Virus record (IMG/VR): IMGVR_UViG_3300015192_000009
Coordinates: 1 to 21,432 of that record
DNA: 21,432 nucleotides
DNA from: a virus
Reading direction: 5' to 3' (one strand)
Shown in pieces: positions 7,126 to 18,443 of this stretch (its first letter is position 1; each line of letters opens with the position of its first letter). Under the pieces are notes generated by a model that did no database searches, was not told the DNA's origin, and worked only from the letters and a program-made list of their open reading frames with translations. The translations under genes and the position numbers were made by a program.

Positions 7126-7301
7126 TGACCGCCCGCTCGTGCATCCACTGCGGACGTCCGTTGCCGCCGTTTCACTGGTGGCAGTGGCCGGGCCCGCCAC
7201 CGTTCTGCCTCAAGGATCGTGAAACGTGCTGGCGTCTGCTTCTGATTCGACTAGGCGTGAAGCCGGAGAACATCGACAACAAGGATCTGTGGGACCTGTG
7301 A
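7122..7301 (+). CDS. Small zinc-binding protein
   Basis: 59 residues, from tandem ATG codons at 7122 and 7125, with an ATGA overlap upstream. An early CIHCG and then, after a Trp/Pro-rich loop (FHWWQWPGPPPFC), CLKD and C-W form a probable C-x2-C ... C-x6-C zinc site. The C-terminal third is a helix (LLLIRLGVKPENID). It resembles the small zinc-ribbon proteins that flank resolvase genes in phage DNA-metabolism operons. Its stop overlaps the GTG start of the RuvC-like gene, so the two are coupled. A longer reading frame starting at 6909 belongs to shadow sequence. Confidence 0.65.
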   Translation: MMTARSCIHCGRPLPPFHWWQWPGPPPFCLKDRETCWRLLLIRLGVKPENIDNKDLWDL

Positions 7302-7831
7302 GTACCGTTGTGGGTATTGACCCTTCGCTGACGAGCCTAGGCCTGTGCGGGATCGTCGACGGGGTGATCGGCAACACGTCCCGCGTGAGGAGCAAGGGCA
7401 AGGAGGATGCGACGCTGGCTCAGCGCGACGCCCGGCGCTCGATCATCATGGTGGCGGTGATGGCCTACGTGGACCTGTACCAGCCGGATCTGGTCTGCAT
7501 CGAGGGCCCGAGCTATGCCAGCAGGAACGGCCACCCCCACGACCGCTCAGGGCTGTGGTGGGGGCTGGTCGCTGACCTGTTGGCTTACGGCTGCGTGGTC
7601 GTGGAGGTGCCACCCACGAACAGGATGAAGTACGCCACGGGCAAGGGCATGATCGCGAAGGACATGGTGCTGGCGGCGGCGATCAAACGCTATCCGGAGG
7701 CGAACATCACCGGCAACGACGAAGCTGACGCGGTGATTATTGCGGCGATGGGCGCGCGCCACCTCGGGGAGCCGGTGGAGGCTTCGATGCCGAAGGTCAA
7801 CCTGGATGCGATGAAGGCGGTGCATTGGTGA
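7298..7831 (+). CDS. RuvC-like Holliday-junction resolvase
   Basis: 177 residues from a GTG inside a GTGA overlap, consistent with the normal 150-180 residue length of RuvC-type nucleases. It opens VVGIDPSLTSLGLCGI, the first RNase H-fold strand with catalytic Asp8. It continues DLVCIEGPSY with Glu69, and near the end NDEADAVIIAA gives Asp141 and Asp144. These are the four acidic residues of the RuvC two-metal site. A GLVADLLAYG helix and VVEVPPTNRMKYATGKG lie between, as in the family. The enzyme would cut branched DNA (Holliday junctions or replication forks) before packaging. It acts in the cytoplasm and is cotranslated with the flanking genes. Confidence 0.88.
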   Translation: MSTVVGIDPSLTSLGLCGIVDGVIGNTSRVRSKGKEDATLAQRDARRSIIMVAVMAYVDLYQPDLVCIEGPSYASRNGHPHDRSGLWWGLVADLLAYGCVVVEVPPTNRMKYATGKGMIAKDMVLAAAIKRYPEANITGNDEADAVIIAAMGARHLGEPVEASMPKVNLDAMKAVHW

Positions 7832-8319: not shown

Positions 8320-8976
8320 GTGACCGTAATGCCCGCCGGGATGCTCGGCGTCCAACCACCCATAGTGCTCTTCTCGGTGGCCACCCCAAGTGGCCAGACC
8401 ATCGAGGTCCTGGGAGACTCCGAGCGGCTGTTCTATGAGAGCCAATGCACGGCTTACATGCACCAGAACAAGTTCACCAACACCTCCGACTTGCTCGACC
8501 TCGACCGGCTGCTGTTTCTCGAGCTGCTGGTCTATCGGGCCACCGCATGGATCGGACGCGGCCAGGATTACGACGGGATGCCGCTGTCCGACCGCGACGA
8601 CGTGCTGCAGCGCAGGAGCCTCAAAGAGACCTCGGTGCTGATCTCGGTCATCAAGAATGACCTCGGCCTAACCCGCTCTCAGCGCGACAAGGCCGCGTAT
8701 GAGTCCGTGGGTGCCTACGTCATCCTCCTGAAGCAGAGGGCCAAAGAGTTCGGCATCCACCGGCAAGTCCAGCTAGCCACGGGCATCACCCTGTGCAAGC
8801 AGCTCTTTGCCATAGTCGGCGCCTTTGAGCGTAGTGATGACGTGGAGCGCAGGAAGATCGGTTTCGAGAACGCTGACGAGGTGCTCGACTGGATCACGAC
8901 CGTCATGATCCCCGAGTTCAATAAGGTCGACGATGAATGGATCAAATCCAATCAGCGTTACTGGACGGATCTCTAG
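8320..8976 (+). CDS. Probable terminase small subunit-like protein
   Basis: 218 residues. The GTG start has GGAG 5 nt upstream; an ATG at 8332 is in frame but has no ribosome site. The protein is almost entirely helical. It has FTNTSDLLDLDRLLFLELLVYRA, DVLQRRSLKETSVLISVIKN, LTRSQRDKAAYES, AKEFGIHRQVQLATG and a C-terminal DEVLDWITTVMIPEFNKVDD. Such Arg/Lys-rich helical proteins just before the large terminase are usually TerS or a packaging partner. It is separated from TerL by an HNH gene and an HTH gene, which complicates the assignment: the 9440-9991 protein is the other TerS candidate. Confidence 0.5.
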   Translation: MTVMPAGMLGVQPPIVLFSVATPSGQTIEVLGDSERLFYESQCTAYMHQNKFTNTSDLLDLDRLLFLELLVYRATAWIGRGQDYDGMPLSDRDDVLQRRSLKETSVLISVIKNDLGLTRSQRDKAAYESVGAYVILLKQRAKEFGIHRQVQLATGITLCKQLFAIVGAFERSDDVERRKIGFENADEVLDWITTVMIPEFNKVDDEWIKSNQRYWTDL

Positions 8977-9443
8977 TGGTCCGGTACGGGACGGCCCAGG
9001 AGCGGCTTGAGGCGAGGTTGGTGCTCAGTCCGACCGGATGCCTTGAGTTCGAGGGATCTCGTCGGCCCGTCGGGTGTGGCTATGGCCTGATTGGCGACGG
9101 CAACGGCAAGGTCGTCGGCACCCACATCCTTGCCTGGACGTTGGCGCATGGCCCCATCCCGCCCGGGATGAAGGTCCTCCACCACTGCGACAATCCGCCG
9201 TGCTGCCAGGCGTACGGCGACGACCACCTGTTCCTTGGTACCGACGCGGATAACGCCGAGGATCGAGCCGCCAAGACGCGCGGGTACCACCAGGATCACG
9301 CCTACTGCCCGCAGGGTCATCTCTATGACGGGACCTATACGCGGCCAGGCTTTCCTAGGCGTCGGAGATGTGCTCCTTGTGACCGCGAAACCAGCAGGCT
9401 CTATCAAGCTGCCCGTCGCGCTCGAATCAAGGCTGCGCGATGA
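8976..9443 (+). CDS. HNH homing endonuclease (free-standing)
   Basis: 155 residues from a GTG at 8976, whose first base is the last of the previous TAG. An ATG at 8937 is in frame but would overlap the upstream gene by 40 nt. The central part shows the HNH_3-type layout: CLEFEG, YGLIGDG, HILAWTLAHGPIPPGMKVLH, HCDNPPC, HLFLGTDADN and D-R-A-A-K-T-R-G. The C-terminal 40 residues form a zinc ribbon, C-P-Q-G-H ... C-A-P-C, plus a basic helix, a common DNA-binding addition in homing nucleases. It would make a double-strand or nicking cut at a specific phage site and spread by repair. Its start and stop both overlap neighbours (ATGA at the end), which is unusual for a recent insertion. Confidence 0.85.
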   Translation: MVRYGTAQERLEARLVLSPTGCLEFEGSRRPVGCGYGLIGDGNGKVVGTHILAWTLAHGPIPPGMKVLHHCDNPPCCQAYGDDHLFLGTDADNAEDRAAKTRGYHQDHAYCPQGHLYDGTYTRPGFPRRRRCAPCDRETSRLYQAARRARIKAAR

Positions 9444-9991
9444 AGAACGCGGACTGGGACCGAGCGAAGGCGCTGTGCCCGCCTGACCGTTACGGGTCCG
9501 CGGACTGGTTGGAGCACTACCAGCTCAACCCCGACATCCTGACGAAGATGCTCGGTGACATGTACCGGACCTACAAGTCCGAGGAGTCCAAGCGTGCGGG
9601 TACTGCTAACCCCTCCGGCGGCCGGCGCAAGGCGCATATCAACGGCAACCTCGACGAGCTTTGGGCGATCATCACGCCCCGGTTCTCCGTGCAGCCATTC
9701 CACCTGGCGTTCGCCGAGCTGAAGGGGTCGCGCTCACTGCGGGCGTACGCCATGAAGTCCGGCGTCGACTTCCGGACCTTGTCGCGCCTGGTGAAGGCCA
9801 GCTCGGGAACGCTCGTTGGCAGGCAGTGCGAGCTGACCAGGTATGACCTCGAGCGGATCGCGAAGGCTGGTGGCGTGCATCCGGCGTTCTTCATGGAATG
9901 GCGGCTCATGGTCGTGCAGGACCTGGTCCGGGACGTTTTCGCTGGTCAGCCCAATCTTTCGGTTTCTGTGCTGAGAGCCCTTTCCCGCTAA
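9440..9991 (+). CDS. Helix-turn-helix protein before the terminase (alternative TerS candidate)
   Basis: 183 residues, starting in an ATGA overlap with the HNH gene. The N-terminal part has LEHYQLNPDILTKMLGDMYR and GGRRKAHINGNLDEL. The middle carries SLRAYAMKSGVDFRTLSRLV, an HTH in which a GV turn separates two helices. TRYDLERIAKAGGVHPAFFMEWR follows and may be a second helical DNA-contacting unit. The size, basic character and position directly upstream of TerL fit a small terminase subunit or a regulator of the packaging genes. Only one of this protein and the one at 8320-8976 is likely to be TerS, and sequence alone does not decide. Confidence 0.55.
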   Translation: MKNADWDRAKALCPPDRYGSADWLEHYQLNPDILTKMLGDMYRTYKSEESKRAGTANPSGGRRKAHINGNLDELWAIITPRFSVQPFHLAFAELKGSRSLRAYAMKSGVDFRTLSRLVKASSGTLVGRQCELTRYDLERIAKAGGVHPAFFMEWRLMVVQDLVRDVFAGQPNLSVSVLRALSR

Positions 9992-9999
9992 CGTGCGTT
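9990..9999. repeat. AACGTGCGTT palindromic motif before the terminase gene
   Basis: The motif lies 28 nt before the TerL ATG. AACGTGCGTTGTCA is identical to the copy at 4096-4109, and the wider GCTAACG-N-GCGTT-NN-CACG resembles the copy at 18991-19009. It may be a regulator or promoter-associated site. Confidence 0.4.
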
Positions 10000-10027: not shown

Positions 10028-12700
10028 ATGGCCGCCATCCAGGCGCTCGACGACGAGGAGGTCTATCTTGCTGCGTTGTTGGATGACCCGAGCGGCATCG
10101 ACCTCTCCGAGGCGTTCTTCACCGACGACACCCCGGGGCGCTCGCACCGGCGCTGGCGAGTGTGGGACTTCCAGTGGGAGCTCTACCGCAAGGAGGACAC
10201 CTACCAGGCGGACCTGTGCGCGCGCTCCGTGGGTAAGACCACCGGGATCATCATGCGGGCCTGCGCGTTCCCGCTGAACTTCCCCGGCCAGGAGATGCTC
10301 ATCACCGCTCCTGAGCTCAACCACCTCGGCCCGATCGTGGACAAGATCGAGGAGAAGTTCAAGCAGGTCCGGCTGCTGCGGGAGATGCTGCCCAACGTCA
10401 AGGGTGGCGGGATCAAGCACCAGCCGCAGTTCCAGGCCACCTTCGTCAACGGGGCCCGGATCATGGGCCGGCTCCCCCAGCGAACGGGCGTCGGCGTCAA
10501 AGGATCAATAGGTGCTGGAGCTCTCATAACTACCCGCCGCGGTCAGGTCCCGGTCGAGGATGTTGTGGTCGGTGATGAGGTATTCACCCATGAGGGCCGC
10601 TGGCAGCCGGTCGAGCACATCGTCGCCTACTTCAACCCCGACGTGGTCACGGTTAATGGTGGCGGCCACAAGGGTCTGGTGATGAGCCGGAACCACCGGA
10701 TGTTGGCTCGCAGGAACACGGCCGGGCCTAAGGCGAAGCGTGCGCTGGCGCAGCCGCAGTTCCTCATCCCCGGCGAGGAGTCGGGGACTGACTTCTACTT
10801 CGGTTCCCCCATGCGCTTTGAGCCTGAGGTTCCCGCCGACTGGGCCGTCAATGAACTGGGTGGACTGAGCGGTGAGATCCTGTGGCTCGCGGGCAGGTAT
10901 GTCGCTGACGGCTACCTGTCATTCCAGCAGAAGCACGCTGAGACCAGCGGCCGTGTGCTCATCATCGCGGAGCCGCACGAGGTGGTCGACCTGCAAGCTC
11001 GCATCGCCGCGGCGGGTTTGACGCCGTCAGCGGTCGTCACGCGGCCCAATGGCACTATCCAGATCGGGTTCTGTAACACGGCTCTCGCGCGGGTGTGGCG
11101 GGAGGAGTTCGGTGAGCACGCGGACGGTAAGCGGTTGCCGACGTGGCTGCTGGGCGCCACCATGGGGCAGCGGCGGGCGTTCCTGGATGGCTACCTCAGT
11201 GGTGATGGTTGCTGGGATGAGGGCCGGGCGCGGTGGACGTTCAGCAGCGCCTCGAAGGAGCTCGCCATCGGGCTTCGGCTGCTCGGTCAGTCACTGGGCT
11301 GGGCGGGGTCCTATAGCTGGGTGGACCCCAAGGTCACGGAGATCTGCGGACGGACGTTGAAGGCCAAGCCGAAGCGTGCCCACCGGGTCACCCTTGGCGG
11401 GTCGAAGACCCGCGCGGTCATAGAGCAGGGCCGCCAATGGCAGAAGGTCCGCTCGATTACCCCTGCCGAACCGCAGATGGTCTACGACCTGCACGTCAAG
11501 GACGACCACTCATACCTCGCTGATGGCATGTTCAGCCACAACCAGCACCCACTGGTCATCGAGCAGGACGAGGGCCAGGACTACCCAACCCGCGGGTGGA
11601 TGGAACTCATCGAGACCATGAAGACCGGCGTCCCAGGCGCCCAGTGGCGGGTCCACGGGGTGTCCAACGGTGTGCGGGACATGTACCACACGGTCACCAG
11701 CGGTGAGGGTGACATCCCGTTCTATGTGCACAAGTACCCGGCCATGTTCCGGCCCACCTGGTCAGACGAGGAACGCAAAGCCAAGATCAGCATCTACGGC
11801 GGCTCCCGGGACAACCCGGACTACAAGCGCAACATCTACGGCGAGCCCGGCGACGTGTCCAACAAGGTCTTCGTGCTGGCCCGCCTGATGGCGTGCGTGC
11901 GGATCAACGAGTCCTCCTGGGCCACGGACTACAACGAGTCCATCTACTGCCAGATCAAGATCGAGGGCGAGTCCCTCGAGCGGCGCCCCATCGAGTCCTT
12001 CATCCACCTGCCGGCCAGCCACCTCCACAAGAGCTACACGTCCTACTGGGCGGGCATGGACCTCGGCTTCACCAACGACCCCTCCGAGTTGCTGATCTAC
12101 GGGGTGATCCGGCAGAAGCGCAACGACCAGGAAGTCGACGTGCTGCGCCTCCTGACCCGCATCCACCTGATGAGGATCAGCGCCGTGGATCAGGAGCAGG
12201 TCATCGAGGAGGTCTTCAAGTTCTACGGGCCCCGCCTGCGGGCCCTGAGCTTGGACAAGACCGGCGTGGGTCTGCCCATCTGGCAGCACATGGACAACAA
12301 CCGGGAGCTCCGGGATCGGGTCAAGGGGTATGGCTTCTCCGAGAAGAAGGCCGTGGAGTTCGATGACCGGCCACTGGTGGGCCGGGAGACCCAAGCTGAC
12401 GCGGTGATCGAGAAGAACGTCATCGAGTACGCCACCGACAAGCTGAGGGAGATCGTGGACGCCGGCATGATGGAGCTGCCGTACGACAAGGAGCTGCTGA
12501 CCGAGTTCCAGGGGCAGGTGGTGGTCTACTCCCGGGAGTCTGACGGCGCCGGTAAGCGCCGCACCCGGTACGGCGGCGGGTCGTTCCACACGTTGGACGC
12601 CGCGAAGCTGATGATCCTGGGCAAGGAGCTGGAGGCCATCGAGCTGGCGCTGGCTCCTCGGCGCCGTCGCGGCCCGGTCCTCGACGGGTTCTTGTACTAG
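10028..12700 (+). CDS. terL: Terminase large subunit, interrupted by an intein
   Basis: 890 residues in the precursor and 544 after removal of the intein, within the usual 450-600 range. The ATG at 10028 is preferred over the in-frame TTG at 9998. The N-terminal ATPase domain has the Walker A CARSVGKT (residues 64-71) and ITAPELNH. After the intein (residues 160-505), Walker B and the catalytic acid appear as LVIEQDEGQ (D514, E515). The RNase H-like nuclease follows, with Asp678 (AGMDLGFTN), Asp743 (LDKTGVG) and Asp857 (HTLDAAK). TerL drives ATP-dependent DNA translocation into the prohead through the portal and cuts concatemers. Because the intein separates Walker A from Walker B, the precursor should be inactive until spliced. 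The portal follows one gene downstream. Confidence 0.95.
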   Translation: MAAIQALDDEEVYLAALLDDPSGIDLSEAFFTDDTPGRSHRRWRVWDFQWELYRKEDTYQADLCARSVGKTTGIIMRACAFPLNFPGQEMLITAPELNHLGPIVDKIEEKFKQVRLLREMLPNVKGGGIKHQPQFQATFVNGARIMGRLPQRTGVGVKGSIGAGALITTRRGQVPVEDVVVGDEVFTHEGRWQPVEHIVAYFNPDVVTVNGGGHKGLVMSRNHRMLARRNTAGPKAKRALAQPQFLIPGEESGTDFYFGSPMRFEPEVPADWAVNELGGLSGEILWLAGRYVADGYLSFQQKHAETSGRVLIIAEPHEVVDLQARIAAAGLTPSAVVTRPNGTIQIGFCNTALARVWREEFGEHADGKRLPTWLLGATMGQRRAFLDGYLSGDGCWDEGRARWTFSSASKELAIGLRLLGQSLGWAGSYSWVDPKVTEICGRTLKAKPKRAHRVTLGGSKTRAVIEQGRQWQKVRSITPAEPQMVYDLHVKDDHSYLADGMFSHNQHPLVIEQDEGQDYPTRGWMELIETMKTGVPGAQWRVHGVSNGVRDMYHTVTSGEGDIPFYVHKYPAMFRPTWSDEERKAKISIYGGSRDNPDYKRNIYGEPGDVSNKVFVLARLMACVRINESSWATDYNESIYCQIKIEGESLERRPIESFIHLPASHLHKSYTSYWAGMDLGFTNDPSELLIYGVIRQKRNDQEVDVLRLLTRIHLMRISAVDQEQVIEEVFKFYGPRLRALSLDKTGVGLPIWQHMDNNRELRDRVKGYGFSEKKAVEFDDRPLVGRETQADAVIEKNVIEYATDKLREIVDAGMMELPYDKELLTEFQGQVVVYSRESDGAGKRRTRYGGGSFHTLDAAKLMILGKELEAIELALAPRRRRGPVLDGFLY
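10505..11542 (+). mobile_element. Intein with LAGLIDADG homing endonuclease inside terL
   Basis: 346 residues (160-505 of the precursor), starting SIGAGALITTRRG (block A, Ser1). Block B is VMSRNHRML with the His at 223. The two DOD motifs are LAGRYVADG (287-295) and FLDGYLSGDG (385-394), with catalytic acids D294 and D393 present. Block F is VYDLHVKDDHSYLADG and block G ends GMFSHN. The insertion lies between GVGVKG and QHPLVIEQDEGQ, a conserved TerL segment just before Walker B. All splicing blocks are present except a nucleophile at +1: the first C-extein residue is Gln, not Cys, Ser or Thr. It lacks the Trp/Cys/Thr signature of class 3 inteins. The endonuclease looks intact, so it should still be mobile. 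Confidence 0.9.
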
Positions 12701-17454: not shown

Positions 17455-17468
17455 AAGGAGTGACTGAC

Positions 17469-18443
17469 ATGAAGGACACAATCAAGACGCTGGCCCGCAC
17501 CCGTGCGGCAGTTGACCCATGGGGCCGCTCCCCTCAGCTCGCTGAGGAGTACCAGAAGGCCAAGGAAGAGCTCAACCTCGCCGCGCGCGAGCGTTGGGAC
17601 GACCCGACCTTCCACCGTCAGGTGGCGGCTGACCTGGAGTCGATCCTCGACTACCAGTTCACCTTCGAGAACCTCTTCTCGACGTACTTCAATGTGGAGA
17701 ACGTCGGCGAGTGGGACAAGGTCATCCTGCGCGAGCGTAGGGGCCTGAAGGTCTTCCAGAGCTCTCGTGGCGGCTACATCGAAGAGAGCCAGCTGCGCTC
17801 CGAAATGTGGGAGCTGCCTCGCGAGACGATGGGCTTCCACGTCTCCGAGCACATCGACAAGCTGCGGATGAACTTCGCCGAGACCATCGAGGACCTCGTG
17901 TCTCTCGGCGGCCAGCGCCTCGAGGCTGAGGTCAACCGGCGGATCTTCAACCTCCTGCAGTTCGCGGTGCCGAACACCAGCCCCTTCTACCAGAGCGTTG
18001 CCGGCATGGCCAAGACCGACTTGGACACCGCCATCCGCAACGTCCGGGACGCGATCAAGCCGAACGGGATGGGCCCCGTGCCCGTCACGATCATCGGCCG
18101 CGCGTCGATGGTCGACCAGATCAGCGACTTCAACCTTGGGTTCGACCCCGAGGCCACTGAGGAGATCCGGGCCAAGGGTCGCCTCGGTGTGTACCGTGGC
18201 GCGAACATCATCCAGGTGCTCAACTACACCGACGATGCAGGCAAGTCCTTCATCCCGGCCAACGAGCTCTGGGTCTTTGGCGGCACCGTGGGCAAGTTCG
18301 CCCTCTACGGCGGCCTCCAGGTCAAGTCCTGGGACGAGAACACCGTGGACTACCGGCACTACCGGGCCCGCAAGGACATCGGCGGTCTGGTGCATCACTC
18401 GGAGCAGGCTCGTCGGATCGTCGACTCGACGGTCACTGCCTGA
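17469..18443 (+). CDS. Major capsid protein (HK97 fold)
   Basis: 324 residues from the ATG at 17469, with AAAGGAG about 8 nt upstream; the GTG nine bases earlier lacks such spacing. It is of ordinary capsid length and lies just after a decoration gene and before a strong terminator. An N-terminal helical arm (KTLARTRAAVDPWGRSPQLA) precedes a core rich in the expected segments: LDYQFTFENLFSTYFNVENV, RSEMWELPRETMGFHVSEHI (spine helix region), RIFNLLQFAVPN, MGPVPVTIIGRASMVDQISD and RGANIIQVLNYTDDAGKSF. A V-D-x-R-H-Y-R-A-R-K-D-I-G-G-L-V-H strand lies near the end. It forms the shell after protease cleavage. Confidence 0.85.
   Translation: MKDTIKTLARTRAAVDPWGRSPQLAEEYQKAKEELNLAARERWDDPTFHRQVAADLESILDYQFTFENLFSTYFNVENVGEWDKVILRERRGLKVFQSSRGGYIEESQLRSEMWELPRETMGFHVSEHIDKLRMNFAETIEDLVSLGGQRLEAEVNRRIFNLLQFAVPNTSPFYQSVAGMAKTDLDTAIRNVRDAIKPNGMGPVPVTIIGRASMVDQISDFNLGFDPEATEEIRAKGRLGVYRGANIIQVLNYTDDAGKSFIPANELWVFGGTVGKFALYGGLQVKSWDENTVDYRHYRARKDIGGLVHHSEQARRIVDSTVTA

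What the first reader, a model, noticed from the sequence alone, without database searches (positions are those of the whole stretch)
10505..11542. Terminase intein with Ser1 but Gln at the +1 position
All splicing blocks and both LAGLIDADG motifs look intact, yet the residue after the terminal His-Asn is Gln (codons CAC AAC CAG at 11537-11545). Class 1 inteins need Cys, Ser or Thr at +1, and the class 3 Trp/Cys/Thr signature is absent. TerL is essential, so either this intein splices without a +1 nucleophile (as proposed for A-type bacterial intein-like domains), or it only cleaves, or TerL is made inactive. It separates Walker A from Walker B, so unspliced TerL cannot work.
Basis: partly seen in the sequence, partly recalled or inferred. 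Interest (0 to 1): 0.65.

Follow-up and report, generated by a model that had tools for sequence, protein, structure and literature searches.

The report
Terminase intein lacking the joining residue
A phage DNA-packaging enzyme carries a self-excising protein insert that lacks the amino acid normally needed to rejoin the two halves; seven relatives sit at the same spot, and in two of them the enzyme is permanently made as two separate proteins, which suggests that this insert may cut itself out without rejoining its host.

Summary
In detail: a 346-residue LAGLIDADG intein (Ser1...His345-Asn346) interrupts TerL and is followed by Gln. It is not an error or a decayed copy. Intein-free homologues read VKG|QHP, so Gln is ancestral and the insertion is scarless. 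Searches of IMG/VR found seven more inteins at the same TerL site. Five keep His-Asn, with +1 Gln, Gln, Met, Ile and Thr; +1 is generally the residue of the nearest intein-free TerL. The eight form one clade (SH-aLRT 99). The 93 other relatives in the tree all have Cys1 and Cys/Ser/Thr+1. Between the window and its sister (both Ser1/Gln+1), intein and TerL are under equal purifying selection (dN/dS about 0.13). In the last two members the intein has lost His-Asn and the block-F His, and the C-terminal half of TerL is a separate gene whose ATG replaces the +1 codon (TGATG overlap); ligation looks dispensable there. My best reading: the intein cleaves itself out at both ends and TerL works as two associated pieces, ligation being absent or minor. 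The main rival is A-type-BIL-like ligation by the free +1 amine. A splicing assay would decide.

The parts
10028..10504 (+). TerL N-terminal extein (159 aa from ATG 10028; in-frame TTG at 9998 possible)
   Evidence: 62-77% identical to TerL of L002, L003, L015, L277
10220..10243 (+). Walker A, ARSVGKTT
   Evidence: GK conserved in 46 TerLs
10505..11542 (+). Intein, 346 aa, Hint domain with LAGLIDADG endonuclease, Ser1 to Asn346
   Evidence: boundaries fixed by intein-free VKG|QHP homologues
10505..10507 (+). Ser1 (TCA); sister L277 uses AGC and L280 uses TCG
   Evidence: Cys in 93 of 93 relatives outside the clade
10685..10696 (+). Block B, Ser61-Arg-Asn-His64 (S-x-N-H instead of T-x-x-H)
10880..10912 (+). 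First LAGLIDADG motif, LWLAGRYVADG, Asp135 intact
11177..11209 (+). Second LAGLIDADG motif, AFLDGYLSGDG, Asp234 intact
11477..11542 (+). Blocks F and G, MVYDLHVKDDHSYLADGMFSHN, with His335, Ser344, His345, Asn346
11543..11545 (+). +1 residue Gln (CAG); ancestral TerL residue
11543..12697 (+). TerL C-terminal extein (385 aa), Walker B to nuclease
11549..11572 (+). Walker B region, PLVIEQDE
   Evidence: E-x-DE invariant in 46 TerLs

Best explanation
This is a member of a single, old clade of phage homing inteins that settled at a TerL site whose +1 residue is usually not a nucleophile. The intein probably leaves the precursor by two uncoupled cleavages: hydrolysis of the ester formed at Ser1 (or thioester at Cys1) frees the Walker-A half, and cyclisation of Asn346, helped by His345 and His335, frees the Walker-B/nuclease half beginning with Gln. 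Ligation is not needed, because the cut lies in a loop just before the Walker B strand and the two halves of TerL can work as an associated pair. Shown: the anatomy, the clade, the purifying selection, and two relatives in which TerL is encoded as two polypeptides at this exact point. Inferred: that those two-piece terminases work, that the window intein mostly cleaves, and that its halves associate. A minor ligated fraction is possible.
For: (1) Members that keep His-Asn have +1 Gln, Gln, Gln, Met, Ile and Thr; for the window and for L176, L174 and L175 the nearest intein-free TerL carries the same residue. In the Met and Ile members a single base change would give Thr (Thr or Ser for Ile), and Thr is found at this position in natural TerLs (4 of 78), yet it was not fixed: a +1 nucleophile seems not to be needed. 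(2) In L280 and L281 the same intein has lost Asn, the block-F His (DHSY to DFSY) and Ser317, but keeps block-B His64 (and Ser1 in L280). The C-half of TerL is a separate ORF starting at ATG exactly at +1, with a TGATG stop-start overlap in both contigs and no intein-C fragment, so neither cis- nor trans-splicing is possible. The C-half of L281 evolves under the same constraint as intact TerL (dN/dS 0.20 versus 0.215), and its 90%-identical intact relative L070 has Gln at +1. C-cleavage residues are therefore kept where C-cleavage frees the C-half, and lost where translation does it. (3) Ser1, in three codon forms (TCA, AGC, TCG), occurs in three members of this clade and in none of 93 relatives; Ser suffices for cleavage but is poor for aminolysis (general chemistry, not tested). 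(4) Intein and TerL have equal dN/dS (0.131 versus 0.112-0.129) over dS about 1.5, so an intein with Gln+1 has long been maintained. (5) The site is a loop, residues 150-164, in the TerL model. (6) Domains without a +1 nucleophile mostly give cleavage products (PMC4031507; PMC7664689).
Against: No biochemistry exists for any member that I found. L280 and L281 come from metagenomic contigs (9.8 and 5.0 kb), L281 is cut at its 5' end, and neither phage is shown to be viable. Selection on the L281 C-half may partly predate the split. A-type BILs can ligate some product, and TerL may be needed in few copies, so low-yield ligation could be enough. Cutting an ATPase between Walker A and Walker B is a severe demand on reassembly.
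Confidence: 0.5

Rival explanations
1. Splicing without a +1 nucleophile, as proposed for A-type bacterial intein-like domains: the ester or thioester at residue 1 forms, Asn346 cyclises, and the freed alpha-amine of Gln+1 attacks the ester, ligating a scarless 544-residue TerL.
For: All residues for both half-reactions are conserved in the six members with His-Asn (residue 1 unknown in L274). The extein is preserved exactly. A-type BILs are reported to do this (PMC4031507). The profile matches the Clostridium thermocellum BIL structure 2lwy (E 5e-10; fold Z 16.4). A low yield could be enough for a motor protein.
Against: [quoted passage not shown] Ser1 gives an oxoester, a poorer target for an amine. 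Two relatives cannot ligate at all, yet keep TerL reading frames under constraint.
Confidence: 0.34
2. Splicing through a surrogate nucleophile near the junction (clade-specific Ser344 at G:5, Ser317, or the invariant +2 His of TerL) that takes over the branched-intermediate step.
For: Ser344 is in 5 of 6 members with His-Asn but in 3% of relatives, Ser317 is invariant in the six, and both are replaced in the split members. His at +2 is invariant in 46 TerLs.
Against: Ser at G:5 also occurs in some ordinary inteins (3 of 93 relatives) and is Gln in L174. The +2 His is conserved in intein-free TerLs, so it is a TerL residue. No clade-wide Cys is present. No precedent known to me.
Confidence: 0.07
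3. The intein is dead, decaying or a recent misinsertion, and this TerL is inactive (pseudogene or defective prophage), or the contig is mis-assembled.
For: A pseudogene intein has been described (PMC3196547, title and abstract). The first 12 codons of the intein have GC3 0.33 against 0.92-0.94 in TerL, a local composition break.
Against: Same junction in independent contigs. dN/dS of the intein against its sister is 0.13 (0.09 in the Hint domain). Both endonuclease Asp residues and the Hint catalytic positions are intact. The ORF is open over 900 codons.
Confidence: 0.05
4. The unspliced precursor is itself a working terminase, the intein being tolerated in a loop.
For: The insertion lies in a loop of lower confidence (mean pLDDT 73 for residues 151-160).
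Against: Hint residues for both cleavages are conserved in all members with His-Asn, which would not be expected if excision were irrelevant.
Confidence: 0.04

Closest known systems
Class 1 inteins with LAGLIDADG endonuclease (phage methylase inteins at the PC|CQ motif, TliVMA, PI-SceI)
   Same: Hint fold, blocks A, B, F and G, His-Asn end, LAGLIDADG endonuclease; 21-33% identity to phage methylase, RNR and TdS inteins; fold Z 23-29
   Different: No Cys/Ser/Thr at +1, so the transesterification step that defines class 1 splicing cannot occur as written
A-type bacterial intein-like (BIL) domains
   Same: N-terminal nucleophile, His-Asn end, non-nucleophilic +1; predicted to cleave or to ligate by aminolysis
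   Different: Sits in a conserved phage enzyme at a fixed site, carries a homing endonuclease with intact motifs, forms a clade inside phage inteins, Ser or Cys at position 1 with host-determined +1
Mycobacteriophage TerL inteins, sites a to g (PMC5050341)
   Same: Inteins in the TerL ATPase domain, several splicing-competent and homing-active
   Different: The five tested ligate normally. Their sites are described as Walker A, a helix, Walker B, the C-motif and the end of the ATPase domain; the KG|xH loop site before Walker B is not named in the passages I read
Fractured genes with split inteins (from my own knowledge)
   Same: Host gene broken at the intein site into two ORFs (L280, L281)
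   Different: No intein-C fragment precedes the second half; it starts at the +1 residue, so trans-splicing is impossible

Membership tests
Class 1 intein | Hint fold with blocks A, B, F, G and terminal His-Asn | tested here: met
Class 1 intein | Cys or Ser at position 1 | tested here: met
   Ser1, TCA
Class 1 intein | Cys, Ser or Thr at +1 | tested here: not met
   Gln in window, L177, L174; Met in L176; Ile in L175; Thr only in L274
Class 1 intein | Ligates its exteins | not testable with these tools
   needs a splicing assay
Class 3 intein | Trp B:12, Cys F:4, Thr G:5 with no nucleophile at position 1 | tested here: not met
   Met B:12, Asp F:4, Ser G:5, Ser1
A-type BIL domain | His-Asn end with non-nucleophilic +1 | tested here: met
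A-type BIL domain | Cleaves, with some ligation by amine attack | not testable with these tools
   needs a splicing assay
A-type BIL domain | No homing endonuclease, variable flanks rather than a conserved insertion site (my own knowledge of BILs) | tested here: not met
   Both LAGLIDADG Asp residues present; one conserved TerL site in eight members; same-site clade SH-aLRT 99 within phage inteins
LAGLIDADG homing endonuclease | Two LAGLIDADG motifs with catalytic acidic residues | tested here: met
   Asp135 and Asp234 in the window and in the five other members with His-Asn; L280 has lost the first
Large terminase (host gene) | TerL ATPase plus nuclease fold | tested here: met
   Model of intein-free homologue L017 matches P74-26 TerL and T4 gp17 ATPase domains, Z 22, and TerL nuclease domains, Z about 16; PHROG 5909; annotated homologue GX15bay TerL

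The most novel reading that the evidence does not exclude
A homing intein lineage that has given up protein ligation: it cuts itself out and leaves an essential motor ATPase in two working pieces, and in one branch it has turned into a mobile gene splitter, with the C-terminal cleavage replaced by a translational restart at the +1 codon.
Probability: 0.4. Interest if true: 0.85.

Novelty: new variant of a known kind. Interest (0 to 1): 0.7.

Why it matters
Inteins are thought to survive in essential genes only because they rejoin what they interrupt. A conserved clade with no +1 nucleophile in a terminase, plus relatives in which the host gene has become two genes at the same residue, would show a natural route from splicing intein to cleaving intein to gene fission. 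If instead it ligates, it would be a homing intein that splices without a C-extein nucleophile and so tolerates many +1 residues, which would be useful for traceless protein ligation. Either way, cloning the members with Q, M, I or T at +1 makes the question directly testable.

Tried and rejected
Sequencing or assembly error at 11543-11545: rejected, the junction recurs. Misplaced boundary: rejected, intein-free VKG|QHP homologues allow only Ser...Asn. Class 3 mechanism: rejected, no W/C/T set. Hidden conserved Cys as nucleophile: none across the clade. Second TerL copy in the contig: none found. The same-site pattern in genome contigs (84,980 species genomes) gave only chance matches by inspection, so I found no prophage copy. 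GenBank phages: related inteins only at 24-31% identity, in other genes. Programmed frameshift joining the L280/L281 ORFs: no slippery sequence seen at the overlap (by eye). Further split TerLs: a pattern scan for an MH/VH/LH start found only the same two. A search of genome contigs with the intein alone gave nothing. Literature searches for non-nucleophilic +1 in homing inteins or for split terminases found nothing direct; that library holds no preprints and few subscription papers, so novelty is not proven.

Full report
Observation. The window is a 21.4 kb phage contig. TerL runs from 10028 (ATG; an in-frame TTG lies at 9998) to 12700 and is interrupted at 10505-11542 by a 346-residue intein, Ser1...His345-Asn346, followed by Gln. 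Pfam Hint_2 and LAGLIDADG_3 and the NCBIfam intein C-terminal model match above their cut-offs. The predicted structure is confident (pLDDT 93.6) and aligns over its whole length with endonuclease-bearing inteins (TliVMA Z 29, PI-PkoII Z 28, PI-SceI Z 23). The host protein is a true large terminase: an intein-free homologue (L017) folds into the T4 gp17 / P74-26 ATPase and TerL nuclease domains (Z 22 and about 16).

The empty site. Intein-free homologues read GVKG|QHP (L002, L015) or GVKG|xH with x = Met, Leu, Gln, Ile, Thr or Val (78 unique sequences: M25, L24, Q15, I7, T4, V3). The insertion is exact and Gln is the ancestral residue. It was not mutated away from a nucleophile; the intein sits at a place that usually lacks one. 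The site lies in a loop (residues 150-164 of the L017 model) just before the Walker B strand.

Relatives of the intein. Ten GenBank phage representatives, and the other viral-contig inteins, often sit in methylases (many at the PC|CQ motif), ribonucleotide reductases and other genes. In a tree of 101 inteins, all 93 from other sites have Cys1 and Cys (83), Ser (8) or Thr (2) at +1. One further exception outside the tree set is L132, a different TerL, with Cys1 and +1 Ala.

Same-site members. A DNA pattern for HN-x-H-xxxx-E-x-DE[AGST]QD found four inteins at exactly this TerL site: L177 (Ser1, +1 Gln, 75% identical to the window intein), L174 (Cys1, Gln), L176 (Cys1, Met) and L175 (Cys1, Ile). 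A looser pattern added L274 (5' end missing, +1 Thr). A profile search added L280 and L281. The eight form one clade (SH-aLRT 99; one change on the tree against a shuffled mean of 7.8). For the window, L176, L174, L175 and L177 the closest intein-free TerL carries the same +1 residue; for L274 (Thr) it does not. So +1 is mostly a host residue that the intein tolerates. In the Met and Ile members a single base change would supply Thr, which other TerLs bear at this position, yet it was not fixed.

Activity. Between the window and L177 (read as L277) the intein has dS 1.5 and dN/dS 0.131; the TerL segments next to it have 0.129 and 0.112. The Hint part is more constrained (0.09) than the endonuclease part (0.17). 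dS of this size is near saturation, so the ratios are approximate, but the intein is clearly not decaying. Both LAGLIDADG Asp residues are present in all six members with His-Asn.

The split members. In L280 and L281 the reading frame of TerL-N plus intein ends in ...DFSYIGDGVVHRGSAFLPNGDKAD* and ...DFSYVGDGIVHKGSRFLPSDDEVL*. The stop overlaps the ATG of a second ORF (TGATG) whose first residue is exactly the +1 position: MHPKKLEMDEAQDYPE... and MHPKKLEMDEAADYPDAGW.... No ATG, GTG or TTG lies upstream in that frame after the last stop, and no intein fragment precedes it, so the halves cannot be joined by splicing. The block-F His, the terminal Asn and Ser317 are lost, while block-B His64 is kept in both and Ser1 in L280. 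The C-half of L281 is 90% identical to the intact, intein-free TerL of L070, which has Gln at +1, and evolves under the same constraint (dN/dS 0.20 at dS 0.39, against 0.215 between two intact relatives). L280 and L281 inteins are only 56% identical, so the split junction is old. Because L281 TerL is closer to an intact TerL than to L280, the split form may have moved between TerL lineages, perhaps by homing; this is inference.

Mechanism. Reviews state that domains without a +1 nucleophile cannot form the branched intermediate, mostly cleave, and in the A-type may ligate by attack of the freed amine on the N-terminal thioester (PMC4031507; PMC7664689). Two observations favour cleavage here. 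First, the residues for C-terminal cleavage are kept exactly where cleavage is needed to free the C-half, and lost where translation restart does it. Second, Ser1 appears in three members of this clade (TCA, AGC and TCG codons) and in none of 93 relatives; an oxoester is less suited to aminolysis but adequate for hydrolysis. I therefore put 0.5 on excision by double cleavage with a two-piece terminase and 0.34 on BIL-like ligation. Mixed products are likely under either model. The step from two-piece coding in L280/L281 to two-piece function in the window is an inference and has not been tested.

Membership. It is an intein by fold, blocks, endonuclease and descent. It fails the +1 criterion of class 1 and the signature of class 3. 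It works, on paper, like an A-type BIL, but differs from BILs in carrying a homing endonuclease and a fixed site in a conserved gene. I call it a new variant of a known kind. The library searched holds no preprints, so an unpublished or unindexed description cannot be excluded.

Noticed in passing
L132, ORF 720+, junction VENNA|CFAPG...IVHN|AQDF: An intein in the nuclease region of a different TerL has Cys1 but Ala at +1: a second, independent non-nucleophilic junction in a homing intein. I did not establish its empty site.
   Followed up: partly
window 10505-10540: The first 12 codons of the intein have GC3 0.33 against 0.92 and 0.94 in the flanking TerL and 0.80 over the intein: a local composition break at the N-junction.
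   Followed up: no
window 10505-10507, L277, L280: Ser1 is coded TCA, AGC and TCG in three members; TCN and AGY cannot interchange by one silent step, which hints at repeated Cys to Ser change.
   Followed up: partly
window 8937-9443: A gene for an HNH endonuclease (PHROG 1872, 826) lies two genes upstream of TerL, overlapping the small gene 9440-9991.
   Followed up: no
L280, L099, L277, L274, L175: TerL genes with two or three inteins: class-3-like ones at GK|S and DK|TG (first residue Ala or Met), class 1 ones at DEA|SD (QD elsewhere), DEAQDYPE|SGW and LMA|CV.
   Followed up: partly
L066 and L112, TerL near residue 30: Related class 1 inteins (Cys1, Cys+1) after D-x-AEF near the TerL N-terminus, a site outside the ATPase motifs.
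   Followed up: no
window intein residues 61, 65, 317, 335, 344: Clade-specific active-site set: Ser61 for Thr, Arg65 for Pro, Ser317, His335, Ser344 for Val; the last three are lost in the split members.
   Followed up: partly
L008 1492-2514 (phage P1 dmt), L010, L011, L012: Phage C5-methylases, including P1 Dmt, carry related LAGLIDADG inteins exactly in the catalytic PC|CQ motif (Cys1, Cys+1).
   Followed up: no
window 17460-18443 and 7226-7831: Probable major head protein and a RuvC-like resolvase by PHROGs; most other window proteins tested have no PHROG match, so the phage is poorly represented.
   Followed up: no
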